Shown: positions 13,950 through 63,878 of the stretch, in pieces
How positions within the stretch are numbered: the stretch's first letter is position 1
How the letters are laid out: each line of letters starts with the position of its first letter
Origin: Tubulanus polymorphus
Lineage: Eukaryota; Nemertea; Palaeonemertea; Tubulaniformes; Tubulanidae
NCBI RefSeq assembly: GCF_964204645.1
Contig: NC_134029.1
Location: 7,988,850 to 8,052,849 of the forward strand
Length of the DNA: 64,000 nt
Reading direction: 5' to 3'
The notes under the pieces: generated by a model
What the model saw: the letters and a program-made list of their open reading frames with translations, nothing else
Databases searched by the model: none
Told to the model about the DNA's origin: nothing
Position numbers and translations under genes: made by a program

Positions 13950-14032
13950 TTAATAACCGGCCAACTCGGCGAAAGTGACGTCCAATTCGTCGCTGATGGC
14001 CTTGTACTTGAGTTTCTCCGCCAGAAGTTCGT
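13950..14032 (-). CDS. TPM: Tropomyosin exon 9 (C-terminus, constant)
   Basis: Two bases complete an Asp codon with exon 8, then 26 residues [20 protein letters not shown]...AELAGY and a TAA stop. This is the head-to-tail overlap end, and the ending LAGY is typical of invertebrate tropomyosins. Acceptor is AATTGCAG. No second, mutually exclusive last exon was recognised. Confidence 0.93.
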
Positions 14033-17000
14033 CTGCAATTGAAAAATAGGCGTTCGTTTTAGATAGAAGACAGCACGTCGCCTCAAACTAGTTTTAGACA
14101 TTGTAGAATCAAAGATCTTAAGGACATTAGTCTGTTTTATCGCATTTCATTTAGAAGTACGTGTAGCACAACGTTATTTCAATAAATTGGAATTGGCACG
14201 TATACTTTATAATACAGGGCTCGTCACGTTACAAACATATTAGTCGAAGTAGAAACCAAAATCAAATCCATTTTCATCGCATGTCCTTCGACAATGCATT
14301 TGATTTGTTTCATCACCCCGACTAACCTACATTTACTATCAGCGTAACAAGTTTCGTTTTTATGAAAGTCGTTTAAGAATTGACCGCCAAAAACTAAATA
14401 TATAATACAAATTCATGCTAGAATCAAATAAATTAAGTCCTGAAATGTTCGAAATTGTTTCGAAGTTTCAGAATGATCTTTTTTGGAATCTCTATATCAA
14501 TATCGTCATTAATCGATAAAATCATGAAAAAGCAGTCACATTGATAACAGAAAAAAGGCAGGCGTATTCTTACCCAACCCACCCGATCTCCCGAGTACGG
14601 ACGTGACAACATCAACCATAATATCAACATCGATTTCACACAAATTATCTCCAAAAACATTCATGCATTTTCCATCTTTTCCCACCCTCGTTATCGATGC
14701 CATTAACTGGCACGTAAACGCATCGAACTTTCAATCAACGGGTTGGTCGGAATGTAAGTAATGAACCGAAAAAATATTTCACAAAAAAAAATTCAAAAAT
14801 ATTTTCCAAATAGCCGAGTTCGAGCGACAAAAGAAGATTCCGTGATCATCAAGTTTGAAAGAACAACAAAGTGCGATACATTCAATAATTTGCCTCTCTC
14901 TATCACCAGATAGAGCGTCGTCGTACATCGGACAAACTGAATGAAAATTTCACCGAGACACACAGAATAAGACTCCATTTAGCGAGAACAAGAAGGAAAC
15001 ATTTTGTCGTATTGTTAGCCTCGCTTGGCATATTTCGACTCAAGAGAAATCAAAGATATAGAAATCAAAAATCCATTTTTCATATAAGTATATATATCAT
15101 GATAAGTCGAACATTTTCGTGTGGTTATCATAAACACATTCTGAAGACAAGTCACAAACAATGCAAAGCTACAGTACGTAAACTTGTATCTTAATGTACT
15201 GTAGTTTTGCAACATTTTTGTGACTTGTCTTAATAAGGGGTATATGTTAACTTGAAAACGTTCGACCTTTTTGATTTCAACATTATAAAAAACATTTCGT
15301 TCTTCTATGGATTTTTAATCATTTGAACTCTCTACCAAGGAGAAATCTATCAAAGAGTAAGAATAAGAAGTCGAGGCTATACATTGGTATACCAGATGAC
15401 TTCCTTTTTCTCGATTTCGTAATTCAAATCGTGACGAAACGTAACGTTCTCGTTCGTTATTGAAATGATACAATGAAAACTGGTCAATGGAAACCCGGTT
15501 CAGATACCACCTGCCTTTTAGTATATCATTGACTGAAATTGCGCGATACGCTCCTTCCAAGCGACGACCAAACCTGCGGTTTTTAGAAGTGACAAAACAA
15601 AGACACAAAATGGTGAGAAATTTCATCGAGGCGCGGGGAGTGCCATCATCGGCCTCACGAGAGGCTATCCGTAGTGGAACAAAATTCCAGTGGATAGATT
15701 ATAGGTCCGTTAACCGATGAGTCCGGACCAGTTGATTTGAATTCAATCCAAACTGAGCCATGTATGGAATTCTCTCATACGAGCATTTGGTCAGCAAAAT
15801 ATTTTTTCGATTCGAATAGAAGTGAAATTTACACTGGAATTTTGCGCAACTTCATCCGAACACAAGCTGTTAGTGGCATTGAACTTGTGCAGGTTCCGTC
15901 GTTTAGGGGGGGGGAGGGCGCAGGAGGGTGTCAAAAGGGGCCCCTCGTACTATGGAGAGCCATGGCTCCGCGTCCATTATGTACTTACTTACTTACTTGT
16001 TACACAAATCAGTCGCCGTTAATGTATTTATAGGTCGCTTAGATCATTCAGAGTAGATTGGAACTCATGTTGCAGTTGTTGGTAATTAGTTTGGGTATTA
16101 TGAAGATCATCTGTTCAAACAACATGCAAAAACAATGCGGATTAGTTCACATGAAAACTGGGGACATCGTTGCTGAATAGTTGGTGGTACCCGCTCCTGA
16201 GAGCTCTCTGTCGGCTCACAAGGCACGATCATTCGTCGAAATTAAACAACATAGGTAATCAATCCGATAAGAGTTGCCAACACAAGAATTTCTATAAATC
16301 CAAAAATCTATTTTACCAGTTTCTAATTGTCACCATAAATGATAGCACTGGCGTATATAGCTATTACTAAATACCAGAAATCTGATATGGTTGGAAATTT
16401 CTTTTTCAGATACATACTGGTAATGTATAAGGAGAATGGTATACATGGAATTTCGATCAAAATTTTTGTTTCAAATGAAATGTTCATCATCATGAACTAC
16501 GCAATGTAAATAGATGTTTTGCAGGAACTAGGAATTTGAATGGTTGGCAATTCCGATCAGAACATGCTACAGCGTGAAATCAAATAGTTGTGATGAGAAT
16601 GAAATCAATTAACTTAAAAGTTTTCCATCATGAAAACTATTTGATTTCACAAAATGAAACAAAACAAGACATGAAAAATTTCAATTGAAGTAATTCTAAT
16701 CTTAATTTCTTTTTCAAAGCAGTGTTTGTTAATGGGCAATAATAATACATGCATTATACTTCATCTGATTCCCTCACTGGGTCTTTGAAGTCAAGTTTTT
16801 CTCTCAAAATTTGTAAAATAAATTAAAATCCTTTTTCTCGAAGATAACTTTTTTCAATTCATAGATTTACTAGTTAGTAGTTTCTTTGACAACGCTCTTA
16901 AAGCCTATGAATCATTTTCATGCTTTTCGCGTTCAAATATTGAACTTTTTTTCTAACTACGGTAGTTCTACTTTGAAAACTTTTCTGCATGCTCTTTTCA

Positions 17001-20000
17001 GTCTGGAGACATTAAATCCCTACAACGTGCACTTCGAATCATAGCTTCATAACTAAACTGAACGTAATGGGGTTGTGAAAAAACAAATCTTCATGAGAAT
17101 TCCTTTAGGACAAAGAAATCTCCCATTTATTAGAATCAACGGTTCATGTAAGGCGTCCACTGTACCTTCAAGTCTGTCAACTTCCTTCTGTAATTTGGAC
17201 ACAGTTCTCTCAGCCTCTGTTGCCCTATGTTCAGCCTGAAAAACATTGCAGAAGTTTCGATCAAAATCAAAAACCAGACGAAAAATTAATCTACCATATT
17301 CTAACCGCATCAAGAAGATTCACAACGAAAACACAAGAACTTGATGATTAGATTTCTTTTTCAAATTTTTTCATTTATTCACACGACGAGGCTTACGGTA
17401 GGCTAAGCCAGCAAGTGCCTGTCATAGATTTTGTCACATCGAAAGAGGTTCGACAAAGTCTGCCTGCGTAAAAGAATCATAATCAGAACTCATAAATCCA
17501 AAATTCTTACCTCCTTCAACCTCTGCGTAAGATCACGGATAGTTTCTTCATACGTGTCTTCTCGGGCGGATGCCTGTAAGAAGATTTAAGACAATATATG
17601 AATAGCTGTGGCCAAATAGGGTAATACATTTTACAAACAGTATAACTACCATGAATATATTTACATTATCTCTTTATTTCAATGGCAAATCCTTTATGGT
17701 TTATGAACATTCAACACAGTAACCTTGCAATTCATCGAGCACCCTACCTACCATATTTCGGACTTCAGAGTGGGTGCTGAAGATTTGAAATCAATAAATT
17801 GCAATTTTCAAGAACTTTCTTAGATACATATTGTATCACTCTCTAGACAAAGTACTGCCTGCATATCCATCTATGGAATACATCTTCCATAGTAAACTGT
17901 ATTTCTAATGCTATGCCATGCTTTCCAAGTTTTTCAGAGCTTATAACCTTAGTATTGTTAGTAAGTTCAGTTGACAAGTTTAAATCAATTGCTTTGTCAT
18001 TGTTGTCCGATTCCCAAACACTGGATGGAATGATTAATAGTTAGTAGTTACATTAGTGTCAAAATCAGGGTCCCTACAGATCAGTCATCCTGGATATAAG
18101 GAGTTAATCTGGATATAATGAGTTTTCAAGGAGTTTTAAAAGGAAAAAATTTCAAATTTGGTTTCAAAAGAAGTGTTCGCATCTTTTTCATATCCAAATT
18201 ATTATAGACTCCTGCTAAATCGGTACCATCCATCTGAGTAAAACGTTAATTTGGTGGTTTTGTAAGCAAATTTTCTCAAGTAGCAAGTTTTAATCAATAA
18301 CTGCCTAATTTGGCAAAAGAAAAACCTGTTCCCAACAGTACCCATTTTACCTAGGCGTAGTATGCTGTACAACTACAAACTAACTAGACAAAAATTTCTA
18401 ATTGCCTATTTCTCAAAATTGAAGGCGCTTTTACGCGCGTTTTTAAGGAATCAAGGAGTTGTAACGACCCTGAATATACAAACCACGATCTATTCAACAA
18501 CAAGATAAGTAATATTCATCAATGAAATATTCAAGGAAGTACAGTAGACTCCATACACTTTGGCATATCAAAAACATTTGTAACCGATATTGGAAAGACC
18601 GACTTAGCTCCCAAATACTCATCGTAACATGCCTCTAAAAATATGGCCGAAATAAATGATATTTCGCTATGTTTCAAACATTTGCATCTAATTCGAAAAT
18701 CCCTAAAACATTAGAAAATAAATCTCTGCGTGCAGGTCATCGACCCAACTATGAGATGGCTGCTATTGTTAAGTCCCCTAGAACATCATCAATTACCGTA
18801 GTGACTTGTATTGATATTACCTTTGCATTCTGAGATTAAAGTGGTAATGAATTAAATCTTTTGGATGTATCAATTGTATCCAACTATGAGACAGCCATTG
18901 CGCAATATGCACAGGCTAAATCGACGAAGAACCGGGTTATTAATTTGTTTTGAAAATAATCTTTATCTCTCCCCGCAAATACGCTATATGAATTCAGGTA
19001 TTTCTCTCCCACCAGAAATATCCAAAATATACGATCGTCTAAAAAGTTGTTTGAAACAATAGCAAAACATTGAACGGACGGGCTGGACAACATGCCGAGT
19101 AACGTAACTGTCACGCCATGCACGCGGTCGGTCGATCGTTACCTCAGCTTCATTAATTTCAAGAGATTTCAAGTTGTTGCCAACAACTCTCAGTTCCTCC
19201 TCTAAATCGGTGATTTTGCTGAAAATTTAAGAACACCGCCGATATTTTAGACGATTGAAAAACACGATAAGGGGAGGGGATTGGGGAAGCAGTCGATCCA
19301 AGACACGTCCAACGTCGTCGAAATAGTGGGCTGGAAAAAAAATGATACTGAAGATTAAGATGAAATGATAAATGAGACAGAGCTTTATCAACCGTGGCTA
19401 ATGAACTGGTATTGCAAAGTAGCAATAGCAGAGAATTAAATGAAGTTCAATAATCATTATTACTACAAAAATATGTAGTAACAAAACCAAAAGTTTATAT
19501 TCTAACACACAGGGGCTGCAGTTGCATATCTGGGGCCAGTCGTTGCTCAACAGTTGGGGTTAAAGATAACTTGTGGATAAAAACCATAGTAACAATGAAC
19601 TTTCAATTGTGACTATGCCGACAATCAAACTGGTTAACTCTAACCAACCTTTGAGCAACTGGCCCCTGCCGGTTATCTTAAACCCACTTTTGAGCAACTG
19701 CCCCCGCCGGATAATATTTCTATGCAAGAAAAAAGTTATACACATTCAGGGCACGAGAAAACTCTGTCACAGATGATTAAGAAGCCAAGTGGAACATTAT
19801 TATAAATGTTCCATTTGCCCTCAAGGTGATGACGATGATAATGCGGATGGACAGATGTTAGTTTCGGATGCGGTTAATTTTACCTTATCTTCCAATTGTT
19901 GTAGATGTTTCAAATCGTTAGTAACCGTTTCCAATTGTCCTTCATAACTTCGGGCTTTTCTACAAGCAATCATAAAAGACAAACGTCATGCAACGGACAA

Positions 20001-22079: not shown

Positions 22080-25000
22080 GAACGTTGTAGTACTTGTTTA
22101 ATTCTATCGATCGCGTCTCGGTCGTATTTAGTTCACTCTCGAGCATTACGGATTTTCGGTTCATCTGAAACGAGAAAAATGTCGCGGACGCATGCAAAAT
22201 ATGTCAAAGATACATTTTTGGGGGGAGGGGATTGGGGTACCACGTGTCACTGGACGCGATAAAACAGCAGAATATTGGATGATGGCTATTAGTTTATAGC
22301 CGTAACGTTGCTCAAAATAATATAGGTACCGGTATACTCATTTACTCAAGAACTTTCCATCTTTTGCTGAAATTATCATGCGATTTCTTACGTATAATAA
22401 GAAGGAATTTCATTCTCCAAAGCACTTGAAGTAAATGGCATTTCACGAGTACGCTAGTAAATTTGGTCATTCACACCTGAAGATGCAACATTACATTAAT
22501 AATTTGAGTATTTCCTATGAATCGATAATCAAAAACTTGCTTATCGTATATGCTTAATTAAACGGCTGTTTTACCAACTAGATAAAATTCTGACCTGTCT
22601 CGTACATTTTCAAGTCAGAATTACGAGGTGTTGTTACGAAGTATGCCTTTCGTAGTCAGTCAATCGCGGAGAGTAGTACGATGGACGCCGAATCCAAAAT
22701 TTCAAACTTCGCAAAAGTAGAGATTTCGAACGGCACACTTCGCCAAGTCGTACGGGGCATCATGCGCAAATTCAAAGTACAGTTCGATACATACCCCTCA
22801 GCAGATTCCAACCTGGCTTCTGCACGCTCAAGATCAACCTCAGTAATAGCGAGCTTTCTTGCAGCCTGACAAACAATCGAGATCAATTTTCATATTAGTA
22901 CAAAATACGTATCACAGAAAAAAAATTATACGAGATATAGGTTTTAACGAGCGAGACAATTCGCAGCTCTAGTCGCCCTCCATTTTTGGAAAAGCGTTCG
23001 ACAAAAAAGCCATTAATTATACAAAATGAATAAGAGATTGCAAGATGGGTTTTTATGTCGATCAACATCCCAAATTTAGGGAAGTTGAAGGGTAATTTTG
23101 ATTGGAAACTATTTTACAAATCGAATAACATCATTAGTTTGTACGGAACACGTCCAATGCATCGAACTCTCTTCTATAATATAATTTCTCACTATCATCG
23201 GATTATAATAATATGCAAATCAATTAATCAATACATCTCCGAATAATCAATCAAAGTAAAATGGTCTGACAAGCAGACTGATAAGGTAAGCTTTCTCTGT
23301 ATTGCAGCACAAAATACAAAATGTCAATACGACATTTCTCCTGGTTAGTAAAGATACTACTCGACATTCTTAAATAATAATAACTGTTAGAAACTATCAG
23401 GCCTTTTAATCTTATATGTGTACATACAAGGTGCTACAAAGTGGATGGCTATACTGGCACCATTTTTTTCCGAGCCCTATGCAATGGCTCAATGGGACAA
23501 TACCAAAAAGGATCACAAAGGGGACTAGCTGTTATTTGAGGCCATATACTTCAAAACTAAACTGATCGTTAATTTCTCGTGCGATAACTATTTGGTTCAC
23601 CTGAAAAAAATAGCAATTCTTTTCCATGCAATGAGTTAATAACAATAACGATAAACCACGCACTTCTAATCGTCACGCTTCATTAATGGACACGCCGAAA
23701 GAAAACAAGAAATCATCCGAGGAACATTTGAAAAGATGAACACAAATGAAACATCGTATTTCAGTCGGAGAAAAGTCAACAACGAAATATGGGAACGGAA
23801 AATCGAAAAGAACGAAAAATACAATAATCGCGTTCGAATATCGTGTCAGGGGGAATGAATCAAGAAGAAAGAAGAAGATGAACTGATTCTAATCAATCAT
23901 AATCAAAAACGAACGGGGAGATGGTGACTGGCAGTCCCTGGCACTAGGACGGTCATGCTGTATTTTCACCTCGTCGTATTTGCGATCGCCGTCCTCTGCG
24001 ATATTTTTGGCCTCTTTTAATTGTTCCTCGAGGAAGTCAATGCGTTCATCGTCGCCCATGCTGCGTTTTTCGAGCACTTTGCGCATTCTGCATTGTAAAA
24101 CAAGCTACCGGTAACTAAAATCTATTGTTATTTTTTTAAAGCATCGCGAAGAAAGGACTTATATTGGATCATATTCCGCATCTGACCACATTTTCGCCCC
24201 CAAATTTTTTGGGTACAATTTCACAAAAAAAAATATCAAATGCGAAAAGAGTATCTATCTTCTTGTGAAACTCGAAATTGGAAATGTTTTCAAAAAACAC
24301 CGATTCAAAGCTGATAATTGAAACTTAAGTTGTGCTGAAATTGAAGACTCCAGGCTTTATACCATTCTGGAAAATTAGGACAAAAGGAATAAGATTATAT
24401 CCCCTCTAACAAATGAGGATGAGAAAAGTAATAAGTCACAATCGCTGTAAAAATTTTCATCGCAAGACTGAATATCTTTTTTTTTACCGACTTTCTATCA
24501 TAGGAAAGTTTGTGAAAGAATAATGTTACAACCAGTCACTTAAGAAAAATCGGATTCATATTTGTCAGATTTATATTTGTTCGGCTATAATTGACCCAGT
24601 TAATTCATACGAATACCACACAGTAAGCCAAGCTTACCAAACACTGAAACAATAGCGTCAAAACCGTATATCTATAGGCCAGCTATTCATTATTTCAAAT
24701 ATGCTGTCGGAAAATGTGTGTGGTGTGTGTGTGACTAGCAATACTAACAATCCCGATTATTCGAGGAATGCTTCTAGAAGGTCACCTAACGAAAGCCGAG
24801 GACTGGCTGGACAGTATAATACCGAAAGTATGCAGTTCGCATGCAGTACTTCATTTAGAACTAGCAGTACAGCTCGACGCGTTCATATACGGTACTTCGA
24901 AGGTATAAACCTAATTCTGCCGCGAAATACATAATCGACCTAGTATTCATCGAGATATTAAATACATAATTTATACGCTCTCAAGTTGATGGCCTTATAA

Positions 25001-28000
25001 TTAAACAACAGCGCTCTATACACAACTATGTAGTGTCACACAGATAGCGCGGATAATTTTCGGCCCGACTACAATTAACTCTCGCGGTGGCGAGAACGCG
25101 CATTATATAGGCCTAACAGCGCTATGGAAAAAACAATTGCGCCGAAAAATCTTATCAATCAAATATAAATCACAGTCTTGCGGCAAATTTATACAGCGGT
25201 GAACAATTTCCCAAGATTTTTTTCCATCAACAACAAAAATAGACCTCCCAAATTTCTTTAGTAGTAGTAGTAGTAGTACTAGACCGCTGCAAGAGATTTT
25301 CATGGTTAGATCGAGACGAGAAATATGCAAATACGTGAACAAATATAACAATTAGCATACGGTGAATACGATCTATAGATATATATATATATATACTGTA
25401 TATTACAACAACACATACGAAGCCATACATTTTGATCAGCGCCACTAATAACATGCATCGCGTCGGTCCAGTGTCCGAAAAGGTCTATATCAACGAACTA
25501 GTCGCTAAATATTCGCATTTTCGACGGGAATTTCGTTTCGAAAGTATTGTTGATATAGACCTCGACGATGGATTTTTCGCTTTTTTTTCTCGTTTGTTCG
25601 AACAGGCGTTGATTCACCTCGTCGTATTTGCGGTCGGCGTCTTCTGCAATGTATTTGGCTTCTTTAAGTTGACTCTCCAATGTGTCGATTCGCTCGTCGT
25701 CGGCCATACTGCGGCTTTCTAATACTTTTCGTACTCTGTCGGTTTACAGGAAAAAAAAAACGAGTCATGAAATGGACGAGTCAACGAACTAGAATATCCC
25801 GACACCACGCCAAACACCGGGTCGGAATGTTCATCTAACAAACACGTCCGAACAACCGTGCCGAATCGGCAGGCCTCTCTGAAACAAATTCTGCGACCTC
25901 ATTCGCGACAACCTGCCTTATAAGGGCGTAGACGATGACATGACGATACGCGGTGATTTCCAGTAATAACAGTTCGCCATCATTATCGCGTTAATTGGCA
26001 CCGTTTTCATAACTAAAGAATGAATGTCAATGAATGAATGAATCAATTAAGAGAAATATATACATCATTGAGTTACGCTTTGTAATGCATAAAACTCGTG
26101 TCAAATCGTATCTCCTGACTTTATATGGAATATACACGTCGAGTGGTAAACGCGTGTGACGTCTATCGAACGGCTCTTAGCTTAGTTCGCTTCGAGAGAT
26201 AACCGAGCATCTGTCCATGTATTACTAGTCTGCATCGTGAGGCCGATGACATATTGCAAATACCCCGTGAGTCATCATACACCTGACATTTGTTGTTGAG
26301 AAAACAAGGACGTTTCGCAAATTGCATACAGTACGACCCATTCACAAAATTCGACACTTCGCGAATAGTAGAGATCAGGTTCGCACACAATTGAATTAAG
26401 GCTACAATTTTATGTACTACCGGAGCCAATCGTTTGGTATTGAATGCGCAATGCAACACTAGTCACAACACTAGTCACGACTAAACGATTGACTACCTGC
26501 AGTCAAGCCTTAAGTTTTAAAAACGACTAGAGTTGTGCCAGATACTTGAACTCTTGCTCATTCATCGTACAGATGGCGGTGCAAAAATATTCCGATAAAA
26601 GGCAGCTGTTATTACTGGTGTAACCGTATTCGAACCATCGGTAAAAATATAATAATCAAGACACGTCCTGCAACACGATGAAGAAACACGACGATTAAAA
26701 AACGCCTGAAAATAACATTTTCAAAACAGCCGAACTACACGTCTTACGCTTACCCAGCCTCTGTCGGCAAAGCGCCCCCATTTCGGTGGACCATCGAACT
26801 TTCGATACATACCTCTTCGTACTTGTACTCCCATTCTAATGACTCTTGGTGGTACATTTTAACGGTGCGTTCTAGTTCTTCGACTCGTTCGTCGTCCATC
26901 GCGCTTTTCACTTCTAGAACTTTCCTCTGTCTACAAATGGTTAAAAAAACACAAACGCATGCGTGTTAATAGGGCGTATAGCATGTCTTCTGCTAAGGGG
27001 GCAATGCGTGGACAAAATCCACGGTTGAGACTTTAAAGTTACATAGATAATCTATCACCAACTTTATCAAGGATGTCCTTTAAATATATTAAATCGAGTC
27101 GATTTTTACCGGTCTTTGCCAAAATCGATGTTCCAATTTTAGATTTTGAGCATTTAGATGGACATTGGCTTTCGGGCAAGCCCAATTTTTGCGTTTGAAC
27201 ACCATGAAGATTTTAAGCTCATTTGTGGACAAAAGTCTCAACTGTGGAGGGATGGGTGGTGGATGTTAGTGAATTAATCAACAAGGCCACAGACTTAATC
27301 CAAACCTTTCTATCTTAAACATGAACTCACAATATGTTCTGAGAGCAGATATAAACAATACATTTCGCCGAATTTGAATCTCATGCTAAGGATTATTGCG
27401 AGCTATGGTAATATTATTCGCAATGTCCCAATAACTAGGTTGAACATTGAATTGAATTAACAACAATCAAATAGGCCCCATGATAAAATCGATAGTCAAC
27501 AGGTGGGTTTAAATCCACACAACTCTCACTAGATATTTCTATAAACAACCCGAGCCTAGATTTTGAAATAGTTTTATTTTGGTCCCTCTGTCTCAGGCAG
27601 ACAATGGAATACTTAAAATAAAAACATTGATAGCCCACCTGAAAACTCTAATATCTCGGTGTTATGTTGAAATCATTAAATTCTGATTTCTTGAGTCTGA
27701 AATTCATTATTTAAGGGCTAGTACTGCTCGGGTATTGGTGTCATACATGCTGTTATGTTTACCGGTCTAATGTCTAAAACCTAATACGTGTTAATGACAT
27801 GCAGAGCCTTGTGCATGCTGTATGCTGTACGCACCTACCAGAAATGATGAAAATACATAGGCCTACATGTTGCAACGCCATCATTCTTCGAGAAGGGGCT
27901 AAAATCGCTTACACACTAACCTTACTTACGAAATCGATTTTCTCACGAGAAAAATTCATTAACATCAATTTCCACTATAATCATTACACACACATGCAGT

Positions 28001-31000
28001 AGATTTTCATTAGGCCCATAGTTTAAGCCCACTTTTAAACAGACCAAAGCATTTAACTAAAACCAGTTCAGATGAAAGTATTTGATCGAAGAGGCCAATG
28101 TATGAAAATCAAAGCTGAAGCAACAACTTAAATCAACACTTTCATTTATACACAAACTTTCAATAACTGGCTGCCTGGTTTATGGAACAGCGGTGCAAGG
28201 CATTTGTCCGAATTATCCAAAAACGTGGATTGAAAAGGTAAGATTGACCATATTCTATTTTCTATAAATACAAAATGGCGTAGTTTTCCTAATTGACTTA
28301 ATTATTACTGCAGATTTGACAAACCTACCGTTCGCTCTCATCTGCAGCCTTGGATGCCTCCTCCAACATCGTTGTGGCCGTTTCAAGTCTGGAATTGGTG
28401 CTCTCGATATCATCTTCAAGAAGTTGTATCCTCCTGTTCAGGGCGGCTACTTCTGCTTCAGCCTGAAATTCAAACGCGAGAGAAAAGCTTACTCGCCGCA
28501 TCGCGAGGGAACAGTCGAAATTTACTGCAGGGAAGATTCCGTTTTTTTTTTAAATTCTATTGATATACGAAATAGTTCATTTTCAAAATCCAAGGAAAGG
28601 AAAATGCTATGATGAAAACGTCAATTACTATCAATTCAAATTCATTTCCACCAAAGTCGGGCCTATAAAATTTTAATTAATTTCAATTTTTCTACATTTC
28701 TTAACAGGGTAGGTTTGCCAAATCAAAAAATATATTCTCATAAAACATCAACAAAAAGAAGACAGAAAGCATAGAGGTATGTTACTGATATAGCCTAGTT
28801 TTTTAACACTAAACAACATTCTCATTCTCGAATTAGGCTAATTGAAAATGAGATTAAATCCCTTACAATCTTTGAGAAACTGAACGCGGTTGATGGAAGT
28901 GGCTTGTGACAGCAATGGCGTGAAATGGGATCACCTTCATTTCACAGTTTTGAACATGTTTTCGTATGCTAGCGTAAGAGTGTGTAGAAATATAGTAGGC
29001 CAGGCCTATTCAGGTTTGCAGACGTGCCGTATTTTCTATGAACCAAACCGACGCAACCATTGTACTAGACCATTACTAAATTGACTAACCAATGAAAGAC
29101 GCATTAATTATCCAAGGTCGTAGGTGTCTTGGAACGCATTACTTCGCAGCTACACCTCGTTTTAAAGGAAATATCACATTCCAAGATTCAATATTTTTCT
29201 TAACCCAGTATAGGTCTAACGAAAGATAAATCAATCGATATCAACATGACGAGAAACCTAATCCTAATAAAGATATTCCAACTAGCCTATTTTTCTTATA
29301 GAAGACCTAGTTCTTATCATTTATGGAGAAGAAATGCATAAGATATAAGATATGCAATTGAATAGACTAGCCTACCTATGCTTTTGAGCTTGCCTCTAAA
29401 CCCTTTGACAGTCACGTCATGTGCCTTAAGTGTAGCCTAACTCAAATATTCCCATTCTTAATTAGTAAACACAGTGAAAATTTGATCCTACCCATTTTAT
29501 CAGTATTGTCAGATATGTTTCATAAGCATACAGAATCCATATTCTCATGTTTTGCTCTTGTAGTTTCCTCTAGGAGGCTTTGATATGTTAGACTATATCT
29601 ATATAGCCTAGTAGGCCTACTTTATCAATAGGCCTGCCTGCACCCAGTCCGGGAGTCCCATGGCCACGAAGAACTATAGCCCTATGACAGTCAACTGGCC
29701 CATGCCCAGCATACAGCTGCTGCAAATTACAATTTTCTTATGATGCTATCAATATCATATTTAGTTTAAAATCTATCCTAAGAATTACTGCCCAAAATAC
29801 AACTAAATTCCAAGCAAATAATTGAGACCCAGATACGTATATGACTGACGGCCATTTTGATAACCGGCCTCAACTAAAAACGCCTGTTACGTTAGTATAT
29901 TACTGATCTACCGAGACATTCGAAAACTCCTGAAATATCTTTGGAACCCCGAAATCAGTATCAATATCAACACGTCTTGGAAATGCACCCGCGGGAAGAA
30001 TACGCGAAAAGCGGTGGATAGAAATTTTTTCAATAAATAACGAAAGGGCAACACCTACTGTCGACCGCAATTTCTCCTCTTCTTTTAATCCCCTTTGGAG
30101 CTCTTCGACGTCGTCGCATTTGATTTCTAATTCCTTTCGAATCTCGGCGAATTTAGCCTTTAGTTTATTCATATGTTCCGCTGCCATGATGTTCGCTAAT
30201 TAATTGGTTGGGCGTTAATTTTCCTTACTAAAATTCCTAAAAGAATTTCTGGTAGCTCGCGACCGAACAACACAACGAACTAGCATTCAGTTCAGACGCC
30301 ACCGCCGCCGGTACGTCATCGACAAATAGTGCCGTCATAAATCGTGTCGTTGACAAGTTTTGAGCGAGTGGCATTTATAAAATAATCTAAGAATCCCGTC
30401 GGATACTCGAATAATAGCAGTTGCAGTTTCAAAACAAACGAGATGCTGGTGAAATATCTAGATTTTAATGAAAATAGGTGTATCGTAAGCCACTAATATA
30501 TTGTCAACTACATAATCGATTTTCATATTCAAACGCTACAAGTAGTTCCATACCGTATGTCCCGAAGACTAGGTCAGAGTCCCGTCAAAAAACCTTCGTT
30601 TAATCGCGGTGACCTAATTTTTAGGGTCCTGTTTCAGCTAATCGGGATTGATTTAAATTGCCTATGTCACCAAAATAAGAAGATTGCAATAGCGGGTGCA
30701 CTCCAAAAAGTTCATTTAATGATTATTTTCGTTATGTACACCGTTATACTTTGTCTAATTCTGAGTAGATATGAAACACCCCACGAAACATGATCAAGAC
30801 TTTAATCAAAATATAATTTTATTCATACTAATGCGAAAAAAGTTTGTTAAGTAATTAAACCAATTTTAATTTTTTTCAGTAGCATCAAAATATATAAAGA
30901 TCCTCGAGTCTTTATGTATTTTCGATTTATTGTCAAACCCGATAATTGTTTATTTCTTGACTTGATAAATTCATATATTGATCTCATAGAATATTTTGAC

Positions 31001-34000
31001 GATGATGAATTAAGAAGTACCTTTTTTATTTCCGTACCGTATACATTAAGAAAACTGTCTAAATTATACGTAAAAATTTTGCCTAGATCTAAAATGTCAA
31101 GTATACCATAGATTTAGTTCCAGATATTATTCATAGGGGGCACCACAAGCTACGGTATCAGCGATAGACGCGTAAGTTGGTATGTTCTAATTTAATATAA
31201 TTGGGTCGTGATTATTAACATATTCAATTAGCAAACTATAAAAAGGTATCGTTGCCATTTTCAACAAGGTCTATACTTTTGTATACTAACATAAATCCGT
31301 ACATATTTCCTGTTCTTATAAACAAAACAAAATACCCTAATCCACACAGATATAAATCCGTCCGAAAATAAAGAGGAAAGGCTCAAATGAAACTCACGCA
31401 CACCAGAAAAAGCAGAAAAAATAAACAAAGCAATGAAATTCACTAGTATATATGCATATTTTACCCTTTTCATGGAAACATTTATTATATTGGAAAGTTC
31501 GGACGAAATTATGGCAAATCTAAGCCCCACCGGGGACGTTAGCGCTACCGGTAAAGTAGCGGGGAAAAGTCCATAGCTAGTAGTCCTTCGGATTGGTCGC
31601 GACGGTACAACGCGATTGGTGCTGTCGTCGGCATCGCTATCTGATCCGAGATCGGAAAATAATGGTTTATTGTTATAGATAATGTAATCGTAGTCGTCGT
31701 CTGGAATAAACGTGGCCCCTTCCGGTTCCGGTCGATTTGAAGTCGATGAAGTCAACGACTTCCTACTGCTGGAAGTTTTAGCTTCCGCAGATTTGGTTTT
31801 CTTTGTTTTCTTTTCTTTTTTCTCTTTCTTTTCTTCTTTAATTGACCCATCATCGGGATCCTTTTTCTTTTTCTTTTTTCTACGTTTCGTAGTTCCTGAA
31901 CATTCACTCCCAGTGTCCTCCTCCCCTCCGGGATTTTCCGAGTCTTTGTCTTTCTTTTTAACTTTCTTTTTCTTTTTCTTACCGGATTCGAGTTGAAGCT
32001 TTCGTTCTAGTAAAAGTGACGTCACACTGCAGTCACATTGCGTTTCCGGTAATGCCGAATCGCCGTCATTAGCGACGGAATGTCGTTTGAACTGATGTTG
32101 ACAACCGCATTTTAATCCATGAACGACACTAGTCCTATCACTGGGCAATATATCAGATTTAGAACTTTTAAAATCCGAATCGATGTCATTATCAACGGTA
32201 AGGATATCTGCCGCCATCTTGTTTCAGAATCTCAGTACTGTAATCCAGGTAGATCGTAGTGCGCAAAAAGTTTTCTGAAACTTGGCATTGCCGCGTGATA
32301 AATTCATCGATTAATCCGATTTATCATTACGTATTTTTCCAAGGTCGCATCAGATAAACATCAACAAAAGTTTCGTATCGGTGATTGCTATTATTCTGTT
32401 ACACAATAACGCTTATGATATCTATAAATATTCCGGAGGGGTGGAGCCCACTAACCAGCACCGGAGATACGCCGTCTCGCTTCCTTGCTTCTATACCGTA
32501 GCATTCCGAGCTAGCTGTATTTCCAAATTAGGGTTATGACGTCACCAGCTGCTAAAAATACGTCCACCACTCAGTACTCGGCTTACTGCAGTGAGCTAGG
32601 TTGGCGAACATTCCTCGTTCAGATGTATGATGCTAATTTTACACCCCTTCCCCGTACAGCTGCATATACGCGAAGTTTAAGTGAATGAAATGTAAAAATC
32701 CAGATATACGTATCTTCTCGACTGTACACGCCTTTGCCGTCTAGCCGGTAAAACCTTTTATTTTATGATGTTTTTATTCACTTTTAAGTGCGCTTTCCCG
32801 TGTTATTTTACTGGATATGTTTGAAATTTTACGTTTCTACACATCGAGATTTAAGTAGACCCATCCATGTATTTTTGAATTTTCTATACTTATTGGAATG
32901 AAGATAGATGAAAAGTGTATTTAATAACTTTTGCTTGCAACAGTGATGAAAATGATTGAGTATGATTATAGGCGTAATTTATACTAGATGGCGCATAGAG
33001 CGACCACGAAGTATTCTTACGGTATGTCAAAAAGCGTTCTACCAGTTCTTGATTTTGGTTTTAACCTATTAAATTGATTTGAATATTGGTTACTTAATTC
33101 ATTTGACATACGATTTTATGTTTCAAAATTGATTTTACAACTAAAATGACTTTGTGAACTATTTCATATATACTCAATATATCTATATATGGGGGACGTG
33201 GTTATGAATATAAATCTTACATCAGCCTGTGATTTCTCCGCAGCTTCCAATTTACCATTGGCATCTGAAAGTTGCTCTTGAGCTAAATCTAAATCACCTT
33301 CCAACTGCGAGACCTTCTTCTGGAGGTTGGTAAGGTCTTCTTCTGCCTGAAAAATACAAGGAAATACATGTTGGTAAATGTGTGGCTTTCTTTTGGATAG
33401 AAAACTTAGTTTAACTAAGTACCCAAACAGCCTGAATAACAAGTCGTCTCGAATATGCATTTCGGACATATTTGGCTAATTCATTCTCTCGATTGATGTG
33501 ATTTTTTGAATAACCAAGGTTCACCGCTGAATGCAATTTAGAATTTACTATACTCTTGGATTCAAATTCGATGTAATAAGGTAACATCATAAGGTATTCG
33601 GGTCTAATGTAAACCGATGATCTATGAATAATCTGTTCGGGGATTGAGTGGAAGAAGCTGAAAAATTGTCTATTCGTAGACCATCGGTATCTAAGTAAGT
33701 GCAAGGGAGCTAAATTTACCGCAACAGACTCAGGGAACGGTCGGTAGAGAGGGGTGTAGCATATGTTACAGCTAATGCAAGTAGCATCGACATATCTTAC
33801 TAAGAATAGCTCGATATATATGTATGAGCAACAGGTGTACTATATCCTATGTCAGAAGACGACCAGGTAATACTAACCCTCTTCTTATATATATATTTGA
33901 GACACATTGAAAAGGTGTAACGGAAATGGATTGAATTCTTCTGCTTTTGTGAAGGTCAAATTCGTACATAGTTTATGTGAAGATCATCCCTAATGTATAT

Positions 34001-35056
34001 ATAGGATTTATGGCGGATAGCGAAGATGGGATCCTATTTTGTATGGTGGATTTTTCCTTACATCTGCAATCTATTTTTATAGAAATGAAACATGACCAAC
34101 GTATTTCTTTGAACGTTAAGATTTATTCTAACGAGGTTTTAGCCTCATGTAGAAGATACGCGTATTTCCTTTTCTTTAGTGATGTTTGAATAATAATGCG
34201 GCATCTACATCGACGCTGAGACGTCAGTAGACGATGTACGTCAGTATAGACGATGTTTTTATGTTTTGCTCATATTCAACAGTAAGAACACAGTTCACGG
34301 GGAAATGATTTTTCAAAATATTTACATCAATTTCTAACGAGGTCGTCTACGCTTTAGTTAACGGATGTAAACGCTCAAAATAACCAGGCTTGTGGGTCAT
34401 AAGACAGTGGTGCCTTCATTCATGAATTCCTATGAAGCGACGCAATATGAATGTAATACTGGTAGTCATACAGCCGTTTTAATTTTGGACAAAACAAAAA
34501 TCTGAACTAATTGAACTATCTGGGGCCAGTTGCTCAAAAGTTGGTTAAAGATAACCGGCCGTTAAATACCATAGTAACAATGAAATTTCAATTGTCACCA
34601 TATCAACTATCTACTGGTTAACTCTAACCAACTTTTGAGCAACCGGCCCCTGAACATTTGAAGGAGTTATTCAGTATTAGGTATCATAAGTTATTGCTTT
34701 TGTTCGGTCTTTTAGTTACTAAGGAAACATTTCCGATTGTTATTTGTAACAACGATTTGACGGAAAAGTCCGTTATTAATTCATCGAATACTCGATTATT
34801 TTCGTTTTGACTCGCTTATCTGTCATTGAAACTTTGCAGATCGAATAGATATTAGTCATTATAGCTACTGTTGGTAACTGTTGATTACAGAATCCAAGAT
34901 GGTGGATCGTGTCGAGTTACTGAATGAGAAGCAAAATTTTACCTTGGCCGTTTTGTCTTGCTCTTCCTTGAATTTCTGCTCAATTTGATCGGCGTTATCC
35001 ACTGCAGCTTCTTTCTCCAGCTTCATAGCCAACATCTTTTTCTTGATGGCGTCCAT
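13950..35056 (-). CDS. TPM: Tropomyosin, with alternative first, fourth and sixth exons
   Basis: Two-stranded coiled coil that polymerises head to tail along actin and controls myosin access. Exons in transcription order: 1a 34943-35056, 2 33221-33346, 1b (alternative start) 30059-30187, 3 28329-28462, 4a 26813-26930, 4b 25618-25735, 4c 23970-24087, 5 22795-22865, 6b 19884-19959, 6a 19143-19218, 7 17511-17573, 8 17166-17235, 9 13950-14032. The path 1a-2-3-4-5-6-7-8-9 gives exactly 284 residues, from [20 protein letters not shown] to [10 protein letters not shown]. The path 1b-3-...-9 gives 247, as in short cytoskeletal tropomyosins. All junctions are GT-AG and in phase. Exon 5 ([19 protein letters not shown]) and exon 8 ([20 protein letters not shown]) are near-invariant in lophotrochozoans. 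Only one last exon was found. Six transcripts per promoter are possible (three exon 4 by two exon 6). Confidence 0.96.
15144..15231. repeat. Imperfect hairpin in tropomyosin intron 8
   Basis: Arms AAGACAAGTCACAAA...GCTACAGTAC (15144-15177) and GTACTGTAG...TTTGTGACTTGTCTT (15195-15231) pair over about 33 bp with a few bulges and a 17-base loop. The size and bulged stem are compatible with a pre-miRNA or a small foldback element. No known miRNA was recognised. Confidence 0.5.
16574..16650. repeat. Second hairpin in tropomyosin intron 8
   Basis: GTGAAATCAAATAGTT (16574) is perfectly complementary to AACTATTTGATTTCAC (ending 16650), with further partial pairing (GTGATGA/TCATGA) inside. 77 bases overall. 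Function unknown. Confidence 0.5.
17166..17235 (-). CDS. TPM: Tropomyosin exon 8 (constant)
   Basis: 70 nt encoding [20 protein letters not shown] and RLE plus the first base of the next codon. Donor GAAG then GTACAG, acceptor TTTTTCAG. Almost identical to the lophotrochozoan consensus. Confidence 0.93.
17511..17573 (-). CDS. TPM: Tropomyosin exon 7 (constant)
   Basis: 63 nt, phase 0, encoding [20 protein letters not shown] after one Ala. Matches the family segment before exon 8. Donor GAG then GTAAGA. Confidence 0.93.
18067..18474. mobile_element. MITE with CAGGGTCCCTACA / TGTAACGACCCTG ends
   Basis: Ends are imperfect inverted repeats (CAGGGTCCCTACAG near 18067, GTTGTAACGACCCTG near 18474). 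The interior repeats AAGGAGTT words in both orientations. Lies in intron 7 of tropomyosin. No coding capacity. Confidence 0.5.
19143..19218 (-). CDS. TPM: Tropomyosin alternative exon 6a
   Basis: 76 nt, one base then 25 codons: [20 protein letters not shown] then INEAE. Same length and phase as 19884-19959, so the two are mutually exclusive. This version matches the usual invertebrate segment ([16 protein letters not shown]). It sits in the troponin/actin-contacting part of the rod. Confidence 0.93.
19532..19667. mobile_element. MITE with GGGGCCAGT ends
   Basis: TGGGGCCAGTCGTTGCTCAA at the left and TTGAGCAACTGGCCCC at the right, with ACCATAGTAACAATGAA inside. The same family is at 34522-34651. 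A second partial terminus follows to about 19705. Lies between tropomyosin exons 6b and 6a. Confidence 0.7.
19884..19959 (-). CDS. TPM: Tropomyosin alternative exon 6b
   Basis: 76 nt, one base then 25 codons: [20 protein letters not shown] then QLEDK. Alignable to exon 6a and to the family pattern LKTVTNNLKSLE. Acceptor TGCTTGTAG, donor AAG then GTAAAA. The aromatic residue and the QQLEDK end make a local coiled coil different from 6a. Confidence 0.88.
21684..21898. mobile_element. MITE with CAGGGTGGCCACT ends
   Basis: CAGGGTGGCCACTTTCC at the left and GGTCAGTGGCCACCTTG at the right, with several TTCCCTGA words inside. Related to 61976-62265. Confidence 0.6.
22041..22079. repeat. GAT trinucleotide microsatellite
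   Basis: About ten GAT/ATG units in an intron of tropomyosin. Confidence 0.85.
22795..22865 (-). CDS. TPM: Tropomyosin exon 5 (constant)
   Basis: 71 nt encoding [20 protein letters not shown] then SAE plus two bases (GG) of a Gly codon completed by either exon 6. Donor GTATGT. Most conserved exon of the gene. Confidence 0.95.
23970..24087 (-). CDS. TPM: Tropomyosin alternative exon 4c
   Basis: 118 nt, one base then 39 codons: [20 protein letters not shown] then [19 protein letters not shown]. Same length and phase as 4a and 4b. Canonical heptads except for a Gly (EDGDRK) where Ala is usual. Acceptor AATGCAG, donor GAG then GTGAAA. Confidence 0.92.
25260..25282. repeat. GTA trinucleotide and nearby AT microsatellites
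   Basis: (GTA)n at 25260-25282, followed by an AT run at 25378-25396. Intron of tropomyosin. Confidence 0.8.
25618..25735 (-). CDS. TPM: Tropomyosin alternative exon 4b
   Basis: 118 nt, one base then 39 codons: [20 protein letters not shown] then [19 protein letters not shown]. The most canonical of the three fourth exons and probably the muscle-type version. Acceptor CCGACAG, donor GAG then GTGAAT. Confidence 0.94.
26813..26930 (-). CDS. TPM: Tropomyosin alternative exon 4a, divergent and Trp-containing
   Basis: 118 nt, one base then 39 codons: [20 protein letters not shown] then [19 protein letters not shown]. The first half aligns with 4b and 4c (RKVLE, DDER); the second half does not ([12 protein letters not shown] in place of [12 protein letters not shown]). 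It has good splice sites (TTTGTAG; GAG then GTATGT) and no stop. Trp is unusual in a tropomyosin rod. It would make a form with a changed middle segment. Confidence 0.88.
28329..28462 (-). CDS. TPM: Tropomyosin exon 3 (constant, joins either start)
   Basis: 134 nt encoding [20 protein letters not shown]...[11 protein letters not shown] plus two bases of an Arg codon. Accepts in phase 0 from both exon 2 and exon 1b, as in the vertebrate short and long forms. Confidence 0.95.
30059..30187 (-). CDS. TPM: Tropomyosin alternative first exon 1b (short isoform start)
   Basis: 129 nt, 43 residues: [20 protein letters not shown]...EEKLRST, then donor GTAGGT. Joins exon 3 in phase 0 (KLRST-AEAEV), the same junction as in low-molecular-weight vertebrate tropomyosins (KLRET-AEADV). 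An internal promoter is implied just upstream, at about 30.2-30.4 kb. The predicted isoform is 247 residues. Confidence 0.92.
31398..32217 (-). CDS. Lysine-rich protein of unknown function nested in tropomyosin intron
   Basis: Long open frame (318 codons to the stop at 31261) starting [20 protein letters not shown]. The N-terminal 75 residues have two Cys pairs (KCGCQ, QCDCS). A charged region (about 78-150) mixes poly-Lys with Asp/Glu ([23 protein letters not shown]), then a Ser-rich stretch, an acidic [11 protein letters not shown] segment and [12 protein letters not shown]. The frame is not AT-biased here and looks genuinely coding. Near the end [17 protein letters not shown] would be one membrane helix, but that part is AT-rich and may be intronic: possible donors are GTAAAA after SMKR (near 31470) and GTGAGT near 31398. 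Further exons were not found. Poly-Lys suggests a nuclear or nucleolar protein; the family is not recognised. Confidence 0.5.
33221..33346 (-). CDS. TPM: Tropomyosin exon 2 (long isoform)
   Basis: 126 nt, phase 0: [20 protein letters not shown]...[10 protein letters not shown]. Joins exon 1a (DKTAK) to exon 3 (AEAEV). Donor GAT then GTAAGA. Confidence 0.94.
34522..34651. mobile_element. MITE with GGGGCCAGTTGCTCAAAAG ends
   Basis: GGGGCCAGTTGCTCAAAAGT at the left and ACTTTTGAGCAACCGGCCCC-type complement at the right, with TTGGTTA/TAACCAA continuing the arms. Same family as 19532-19667. In the first intron of tropomyosin. Confidence 0.75.
34943..35056 (-). CDS. TPM: Tropomyosin exon 1a (long isoform start)
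   Basis: 114 nt, 38 residues: [20 protein letters not shown]...EEQDKTAK, the classic muscle-type N-terminus. The ATG context is CCAAAATGG. The 5' end and promoter would lie just above 35057. Confidence 0.96.

Positions 35057-38640: not shown

Positions 38641-63878
<25,238 letters not shown>

What the first reader, a model, noticed from the sequence alone, without database searches (positions are those of the whole stretch)
23970..26930. Three mutually exclusive fourth exons in one tropomyosin gene, one of them strongly divergent and containing Trp
Exons 4a, 4b and 4c are each 118 nt, start with one base of a split Arg codon and end in phase 0, so only one can be used at a time. 4b and 4c are similar. 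4a keeps the first half (RKVLE, DDER) but its second half ([12 protein letters not shown]) is unlike other tropomyosins and contains Trp, normally absent from the rod. Vertebrate genes do not vary this exon. The changed segment lies in the central actin-binding periods, so isoforms could differ in actin affinity or partner choice.
Basis: partly seen in the sequence, partly recalled or inferred. Interest (0 to 1): 0.75.

Follow-up and report, generated by a model that had tools for sequence, protein, structure and literature searches.

The report
Three alternative fourth exons of tropomyosin
This animal's tropomyosin gene carries three interchangeable copies of its fourth exon, one of which changes the inner seam of the protein rod, and the same gene also seems to hold a hidden first exon like that of the fruit fly's cargo-carrying tropomyosin.

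Summary
On the minus strand, exons 4a (26930-26813), 4b (25735-25618) and 4c (24087-23970) are each 118 nt, flanked by AG/GT, in the same phase; skipping exon 4 or joining two or three copies gives early stops. 4a does not look like a decayed relic: 0 of 20,000 neutral simulations from either sister exon kept its 12-of-20 match in the first half.

Positions usually named as actin contacts (within 125-142, recalled) keep their charge in 4a. What changes is the coiled-coil core: the Ala151-Ala155-Ala158 cluster, shared by exon 4b, fly and vertebrate, becomes Tyr-Ser-Trp. Exon 5b likewise keeps R167/K168 and lacks core alanines. Exons 4, 5, 6 and 9 all have alternative copies, and protein search found no other tropomyosin gene; this fits the known "internal paralog" pattern (recalled). 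So: a new member of a known kind, with a testable core switch.

More surprising, intron 2 holds a 251-codon first exon (32217-31465). Its last 20 residues plus exon 3 match Drosophila atypical tropomyosin Tm1-I/C, the kinesin-1/oskar adaptor, at the same junction.

There is no RNA evidence, no orthologue was available, and the species is unknown.

The parts
34943..35056 (-). exon 1a (long, muscle-type start; MDAIKKKM...)
33221..33346 (-). exon 2
31465..32217 (-). proposed first exon 1c, 251 codons, phase-0 donor GTAAAA; its end resembles Drosophila Tm1-I/C
30059..30187 (-). exon 1b (proposed short-form start; [13 protein letters not shown]...)
28329..28462 (-). exon 3 (single copy)
26813..26930 (-). 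exon 4a, divergent, Trp158 at a core d position
25618..25735 (-). exon 4b, canonical, Ala151/155/158
23970..24087 (-). exon 4c, canonical, Ala151/155, Gly158
22795..22865 (-). exon 5a, canonical
22094..22164 (-). exon 5b, divergent alternative, no core Ala
19884..19959 (-). exon 6a, alternative
19143..19218 (-). exon 6b, alternative
17511..17573 (-). exon 7
17166..17235 (-). exon 8
16026..16110 (-). exon 9a, alternative C-terminal end (...STLNDLSDL)
13950..14032 (-). exon 9b, muscle-type C-terminal end (...AELAGY)

Best explanation
Exons 4a, 4b and 4c are tandem duplicates of tropomyosin exon 4, of which one is chosen per transcript; the other choices tested break the frame (shown from sequence; the mechanism of choice is not). 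From their divergence I infer that 4b and 4c duplicated later and that 4a is an older, specialised copy under protein-level constraint. It keeps the half whose charged surface positions are thought to face actin and replaces the alanine cluster of the rod core by Tyr-Ser-Trp (shown). Inferred: 4a belongs with exons 5b, 6a and 9a to a non-muscle set used from start 1b and/or 1c, so that one gene does the work of separate muscle and cytoskeletal tropomyosins, and the core change alters local flexibility, dimer pairing or partner fit on actin. That 4a is a real exon: about 0.9. That it belongs to a non-muscle set: about 0.5. That the core change is the functional difference: about 0.5.
For: Structure, phases and splice sites; 48 of 48 long and short combinations open to one terminal stop. 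Neutral null, to a DNA identity of 61 of 118: from 4b, 1,821 of 20,000 runs stayed open, 163 also kept AG/GT, 0 reached 12 of 20 first-half identities; from 4c 2,045, 155 and 0. Of the 16 residues that 4a shares with 4b, 8 use a different codon (same for 4c). The Ala cluster 151/155/158 is shared by 4b, the fly chain and the vertebrate chain, not by 4a; D137 is kept. 5b also lacks core Ala (0 against 3 in 5a) and keeps R167/K168. Identity of the alternative pairs: 5a/5b 6 of 23, 6a/6b 9 of 25, 9a/9b 6 of 27, 4a/4b 16 of 39. One tropomyosin gene by protein search with a 4b/5a/6b/9b form: 10 of 10 matches at E<=0.1 lie in it. PMC2710508 (passages): alanine-rich interfaces give flexibility needed for actin binding, and residues 130-190 are the least stable region; its mutants concerned periods 2, 3 and 5, not the cluster changed here.
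Against: No RNA. No orthologue of 4a. The grouping 4a+5b+6a+9a rests on divergence alone, not on linked reads; 6a is only slightly less vertebrate-like than 6b (11 against 14 of 25), and 9a is about as near to a recalled vertebrate non-muscle end (8 of 27) as to the muscle end (7 of 27). The short 4a isoform is not nearer to the short tropomyosin chains in PDB (131.7 and 129.2 bits) than to full-length chains (up to 135.3). PMC7698929 (passages): stiffening the centre with A134L did not change primary actin binding, so a core change need not alter affinity. PF00261 also matches on three other contigs; one of them (C6) passes the cut-off, but only together with its neighbours in the frame; not followed up.
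Confidence: 0.55

Rival explanations
1. 4a is a muscle variant: it is joined to exons 1a/2 and 9b in one muscle type and tunes thin-filament regulation by troponin rather than marking a cytoskeletal form.
For: Exon phases allow any combination (48 of 48 open). One troponin-family match exists in the genome. In C. elegans, alternative exons 7a/7b are chosen differently in head and body muscle (PMC10512467 passages). The changed half lies near the region where the troponin core is thought to sit (recalled).
Against: 4a departs from known tropomyosins much more than 4c does: swapping 4a for 4b costs 30.8 bits against PF00261, 4c only 1.2 (286.6, 285.4, 255.8 bits). This does not bear directly on tissue.
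Confidence: 0.25
2. 4a makes a poor actin binder with another job, as C. elegans exon 7c does in LEV-11U (this can be true together with the main explanation).
For: LEV-11U carries a third, strongly divergent alternative exon (17.0 and 19.2% identity), binds actin poorly, and worms mutant in that exon show reduced motility and brood size (PMC10512467, abstract and one section). The 4a core has Tyr, Ser and Trp at three successive core positions.
Against: Unlike exon 7c, which lost 13 conserved charges, 4a keeps the charge at the six first-half positions compared.
Confidence: 0.3
3. 4a is an unused or decaying duplicate.
For: Strong divergence in the second half; no RNA evidence here.
Against: Intact frame, splice sites and length; strong first-half constraint (0 of 20,000 neutral runs from each sister); a GTATGT donor and a T-rich acceptor.
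Confidence: 0.07

Closest known systems
Tandem alternative exon sets of metazoan tropomyosin genes ('internal paralogs', Irimia et al. 2010: content recalled, paper not held; cited in PMC9741552, passages)
   Same: Tandem duplicated exons, one used at a time; separate long and short starts; divergent copies inside one gene
   Different: Here exon 4 has three copies and 4a lacks the Ala cluster of the core; whether this exact state is in the 2010 survey could not be checked
C. elegans lev-11 exons 7a/7b/7c (LEV-11U)
   Same: Three alternative copies of one rod exon, two alike and one strongly divergent
   Different: Other part of the rod (residues 188-234); exon 7c also loses many conserved charges, 4a keeps those compared in its first half
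Drosophila atypical tropomyosin Tm1-I/C (SD21996p; PDB 7bjg, 7bjs, 7bjn)
   Same: Proposed first exon 1c: 251 residues, then 10 of 20 identical residues up to the same junction with exon 3
   Different: Only the last 20 residues of 1c could be compared; no kinesin or RNA binding tested; the exon-4 part of the fly chain is like 4b (23 of 37), not 4a (13 of 37)
Vertebrate tropomyosins in PDB
   Same: Length and heptad register; residues 1-278 of the 4b form align without gaps
   Different: That vertebrates do not vary exon 4 is recalled; the alignments shown hold nothing like 4a or 5b

Membership tests
Tropomyosin (Pfam PF00261) | Score above the family cut-off (38.6 bits) | tested here: met
   4b, 4c and 4a long forms 286.6, 285.4, 255.8 bits; short 4a form 194.1 bits
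Tropomyosin (Pfam PF00261) | 284 residues (long) or about 248 (short), same register as vertebrate chains | tested here: met
   284 and 247 residues; ungapped alignment to the vertebrate chains shown
Mutually exclusive tandem exon set | Homologous neighbouring exons of equal length and phase | tested here: met
Mutually exclusive tandem exon set | Joint inclusion or skipping disrupts the protein | tested here: met
   skip, 3 of 3 pairs and the triple all meet an early stop in the one background tried
Mutually exclusive tandem exon set | Exactly one copy per transcript in RNA | not testable with these tools
   no RNA data
Internal paralog (long- and short-form-specific exon sets) | Copies chosen in concert along the gene | not testable with these tools
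   no RNA data; only the divergence pattern
Atypical tropomyosin Tm1-I/C | Unique N-terminal exon joined to the rod at exon 3, with a similar junction segment | tested here: met
   Sequence only: 124.2 bits to 7bjg with the segment, 98.4 in the long-form search without it; 10 of 20 identical, 0 of 200,000 shuffles reach the score of 53, next best of 41,160 window stretches 25. That 1c is spliced to exon 3 is not shown.
Atypical tropomyosin Tm1-I/C | Binds the kinesin heavy chain tail and RNA | not testable with these tools
   needs protein work

The most novel reading that the evidence does not exclude
A single gene makes three classes of tropomyosin: muscle (1a), cytoskeletal (1b) and a kinesin/RNA adaptor (1c) homologous to Drosophila Tm1-I/C, so the adaptor is much older than oskar, and the choice of exon 4 (with or without the alanine cluster) switches the shared rod between actin cables and other partners.
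Probability: 0.2. Interest if true: 0.8.

Novelty: new member of a known kind. Interest (0 to 1): 0.5.

Why it matters
The alanine clusters are thought to give tropomyosin the flexibility it needs on actin, argued in PMC2710508 from engineered mutants (passages). A natural exon that swaps one such cluster while keeping the neighbouring charged face is a ready-made test of that idea. The accompanying Tm1-I/C-like first exon, if expressed, would mean that a tropomyosin-based kinesin adaptor known to me only from Drosophila exists in an animal whose tropomyosin is about as far from the fly's as from a vertebrate's (55 and 52 of 82 identical), and so probably did not arise for oskar.

Tried and rejected
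Rejected: a compensated frame shift as origin of the 4a second half; it scores about the same in its own frame (11 with 4b, 14 with 4c) as in the best other frame (13 with 4b frame 2; -4 and -12 with 4c). Rejected: further copies of exons 2 to 8 with the same lengths in the window (the known exons lead that list by matching themselves, so it only shows that no others stand out). Inconclusive: splicing-factor motifs between exon 3 and exon 5a: GCATG 11 against a Markov mean of 4.5 (3 of 300 runs reach it), TGCATG 5 against 1.7 (7 of 300), TGTGTG 6 against 1.8 (9 of 300), while CTAAC, TCTT and YGCY are not enriched (116, 246 and 289 of 300); six motifs were tried, so this is a hint of RBFOX/CELF control (names recalled), no more. 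Steric exclusion by very short introns does not fit: the introns between copies are 1,077 and 1,530 nt. Not done: structure prediction, since a single chain says nothing about the two-chain core. Kinesin motor genes are present in the genome (62 listed exon-level matches), which says nothing specific about kinesin-1. Papers: 10 of 10 searches used; in the titles and abstract starts listed there (capped lists) I saw none on alternative fourth exons of a tropomyosin gene or on Tm1-I/C outside Drosophila, but the 2010 survey and the 2021 Tm1-I/C structure paper are not held.
Full report
WHAT IS THERE. The window holds a complete-looking tropomyosin gene on the minus strand, from the exon 1a start codon at 35056 to the exon 9b stop at 13950. 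Its exon lengths are 114, 126, 134, 118, 71, 76, 63 and 70 nt plus the last exon. There are two ordinary starts (1a with 2, and 1b), three fourth exons, two fifth, two sixth and two last exons. All 48 combinations are open to a single terminal stop (an earlier count of 24 of 48 was due to my cutting exon 9b short). The proteins are 284 or 247 residues long.

THE THREE FOURTH EXONS. 4a is 26930-26813, 4b 25735-25618, 4c 24087-23970. Each starts with the third base of the Arg125 codon and ends in phase 0, with AG before and GT after. Leaving exon 4 out, joining any two copies (3 of 3 pairs) or all three gives an early stop in the one background tried, so frame alone could remove such transcripts. 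That the cell really uses one copy at a time is inferred.

IS 4a REAL? Against 4b and 4c it scores 69 and 70 where the best of 29 other open AG-118-GT pieces in the window scores -6. In simulations of neutral change from 4b to the observed DNA identity (61 of 118), 1,821 of 20,000 runs stayed open, 163 also kept both splice dinucleotides, and none kept 12 of 20 first-half residues; from 4c, to the same identity, the numbers are 2,045, 155 and 0. Of the 16 residues that 4a shares with 4b, 8 are written with a different codon. The second half is only weakly related (4 of 19 identical; 568 of 20,000 shuffles reach its score). The peptide matches once in the 267.8 Mb genome at E<=1, here.

WHAT 4a CHANGES. 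In tropomyosin numbering (a = 1, d = 4 of each heptad from residue 1), the core of 4b in this stretch is L148, A151, A155, A158, Y162; that of 4a is V148, Y151, S155, W158, Y162. The three alanines are the same in 4b, in the Drosophila chain and in the vertebrate chain. The charged residues at 125, 128, 133, 138, 139 and 142 keep their sign in 4a; that these include the actin-facing ones of period 4 is recalled, since the papers that define them are not held. So the difference is in large part a natural swap of one alanine cluster, although outer positions of the second half differ too. Exon 5b does something similar: it keeps R167 and K168 and has no core alanine where 5a has three. Passages of PMC2710508 say that alanine-rich interfaces supply flexibility needed for actin binding and that residues 130-190 are the least stable part; passages of PMC7698929 say that stiffening the centre (A134L) altered calcium sensitivity but not primary actin binding. 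The direction of any effect of Tyr-Ser-Trp cannot be told from sequence.

SETTING. By protein search with the 4b/5a/6b/9b form this is the only tropomyosin gene found: 10 of 10 matches at E<=0.1 lie in it. The family search gave 6 matches, 3 here and one each on contigs C6, C7 and C2; the C6 one passes the cut-off only with its neighbours in the frame, and was not followed up; the same family rang in 5 of 14 prokaryote control genomes (over the cut-off in none), so weak matches are to be expected from any coiled coil. One troponin-family match exists.

A SECOND, UNEXPECTED FEATURE. Between exons 2 and 1b lies an open frame whose first 251 codons (32217-31465) end at a phase-0 GT donor. Joined to exon 3, its last 20 residues continue the match to the Drosophila protein SD21996p (PDB 7bjg, 7bjs, 7bjn), which I take to be the atypical tropomyosin Tm1-I/C (the link of name to entry is recalled). 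The 7bjg score is 124.2 bits with that segment and 98.4 in the long-form search, which lacks it. Ten of 20 residues are identical and the match runs on without a gap into exon 3; 0 of 200,000 shuffles reach the score, and the next best of 41,160 stretches in the window scores 25 against 53. All 24 downstream combinations are open, giving 455 residues; the fly protein has 441 (PMC10948360 passages). About 0.0002 open runs this long would be expected by chance from base composition. The frame stays open for 67 further codons past the donor, so an unspliced reading is not excluded, and the Pfam scan of this frame gave only one weak match below cut-off (LTV). It occurs once in the genome. In flies this isoform ties kinesin-1 to oskar mRNA (PMC10948360, PMC8247605; passages).

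COMPARISON. Sets of tandem alternative exons in tropomyosin genes are known: passages of PMC9741552 count 13 events in 4 human genes, 7 in 2 fly genes and several in worm lev-11, and cite Irimia et al. 2010, whose argument (parallel growth of long- and short-form-specific exon sets, touching every exon in some lineage) I know only by recall. The nearest tested case is C. elegans exon 7c: a third, divergent copy that makes a poor actin binder (PMC10512467; abstract, one section and passages). The present trio is therefore a new member of a known kind; the core swap gives it interest.

VERDICT. Observation confirmed; interpretation partly supported. That 4a is a real exon is well supported; its grouping with other divergent exons and its mechanism are inferences, and RNA evidence is needed.

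Noticed in passing
31465-32217 (minus strand): A 251-codon lysine-rich open exon inside intron 2 whose end, joined to exon 3, matches the start of the rod of Drosophila atypical tropomyosin Tm1-I/C at the same junction.
   Followed up: partly
22094-22164 and 19884-19959 (minus strand): Divergent alternative exons 5b and 6a; 5b, like 4a, has no core alanines.
   Followed up: partly
16026-16110 and 13950-14032 (minus strand): Two alternative last exons, one of muscle type (9b).
   Followed up: partly
39237-39964 (minus strand): Open frame with a weak death-domain match (PF00531, 19.7 bits, below the 22.6 cut-off).
   Followed up: no
51762-52390 (minus strand): Open frame for a Ras-family GTPase (PF00071, 80 bits).
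   Followed up: no
about 34518-34646 and 19530-19665 (minus strand): Two copies of a short element with inverted ends (ggccagttgctcaaa...), seen by eye, perhaps a small non-autonomous transposon.
   Followed up: no
G000 contig C6 20121773-20122264: A long open frame elsewhere in the genome that passes the tropomyosin family cut-off only together with its neighbours.
   Followed up: no
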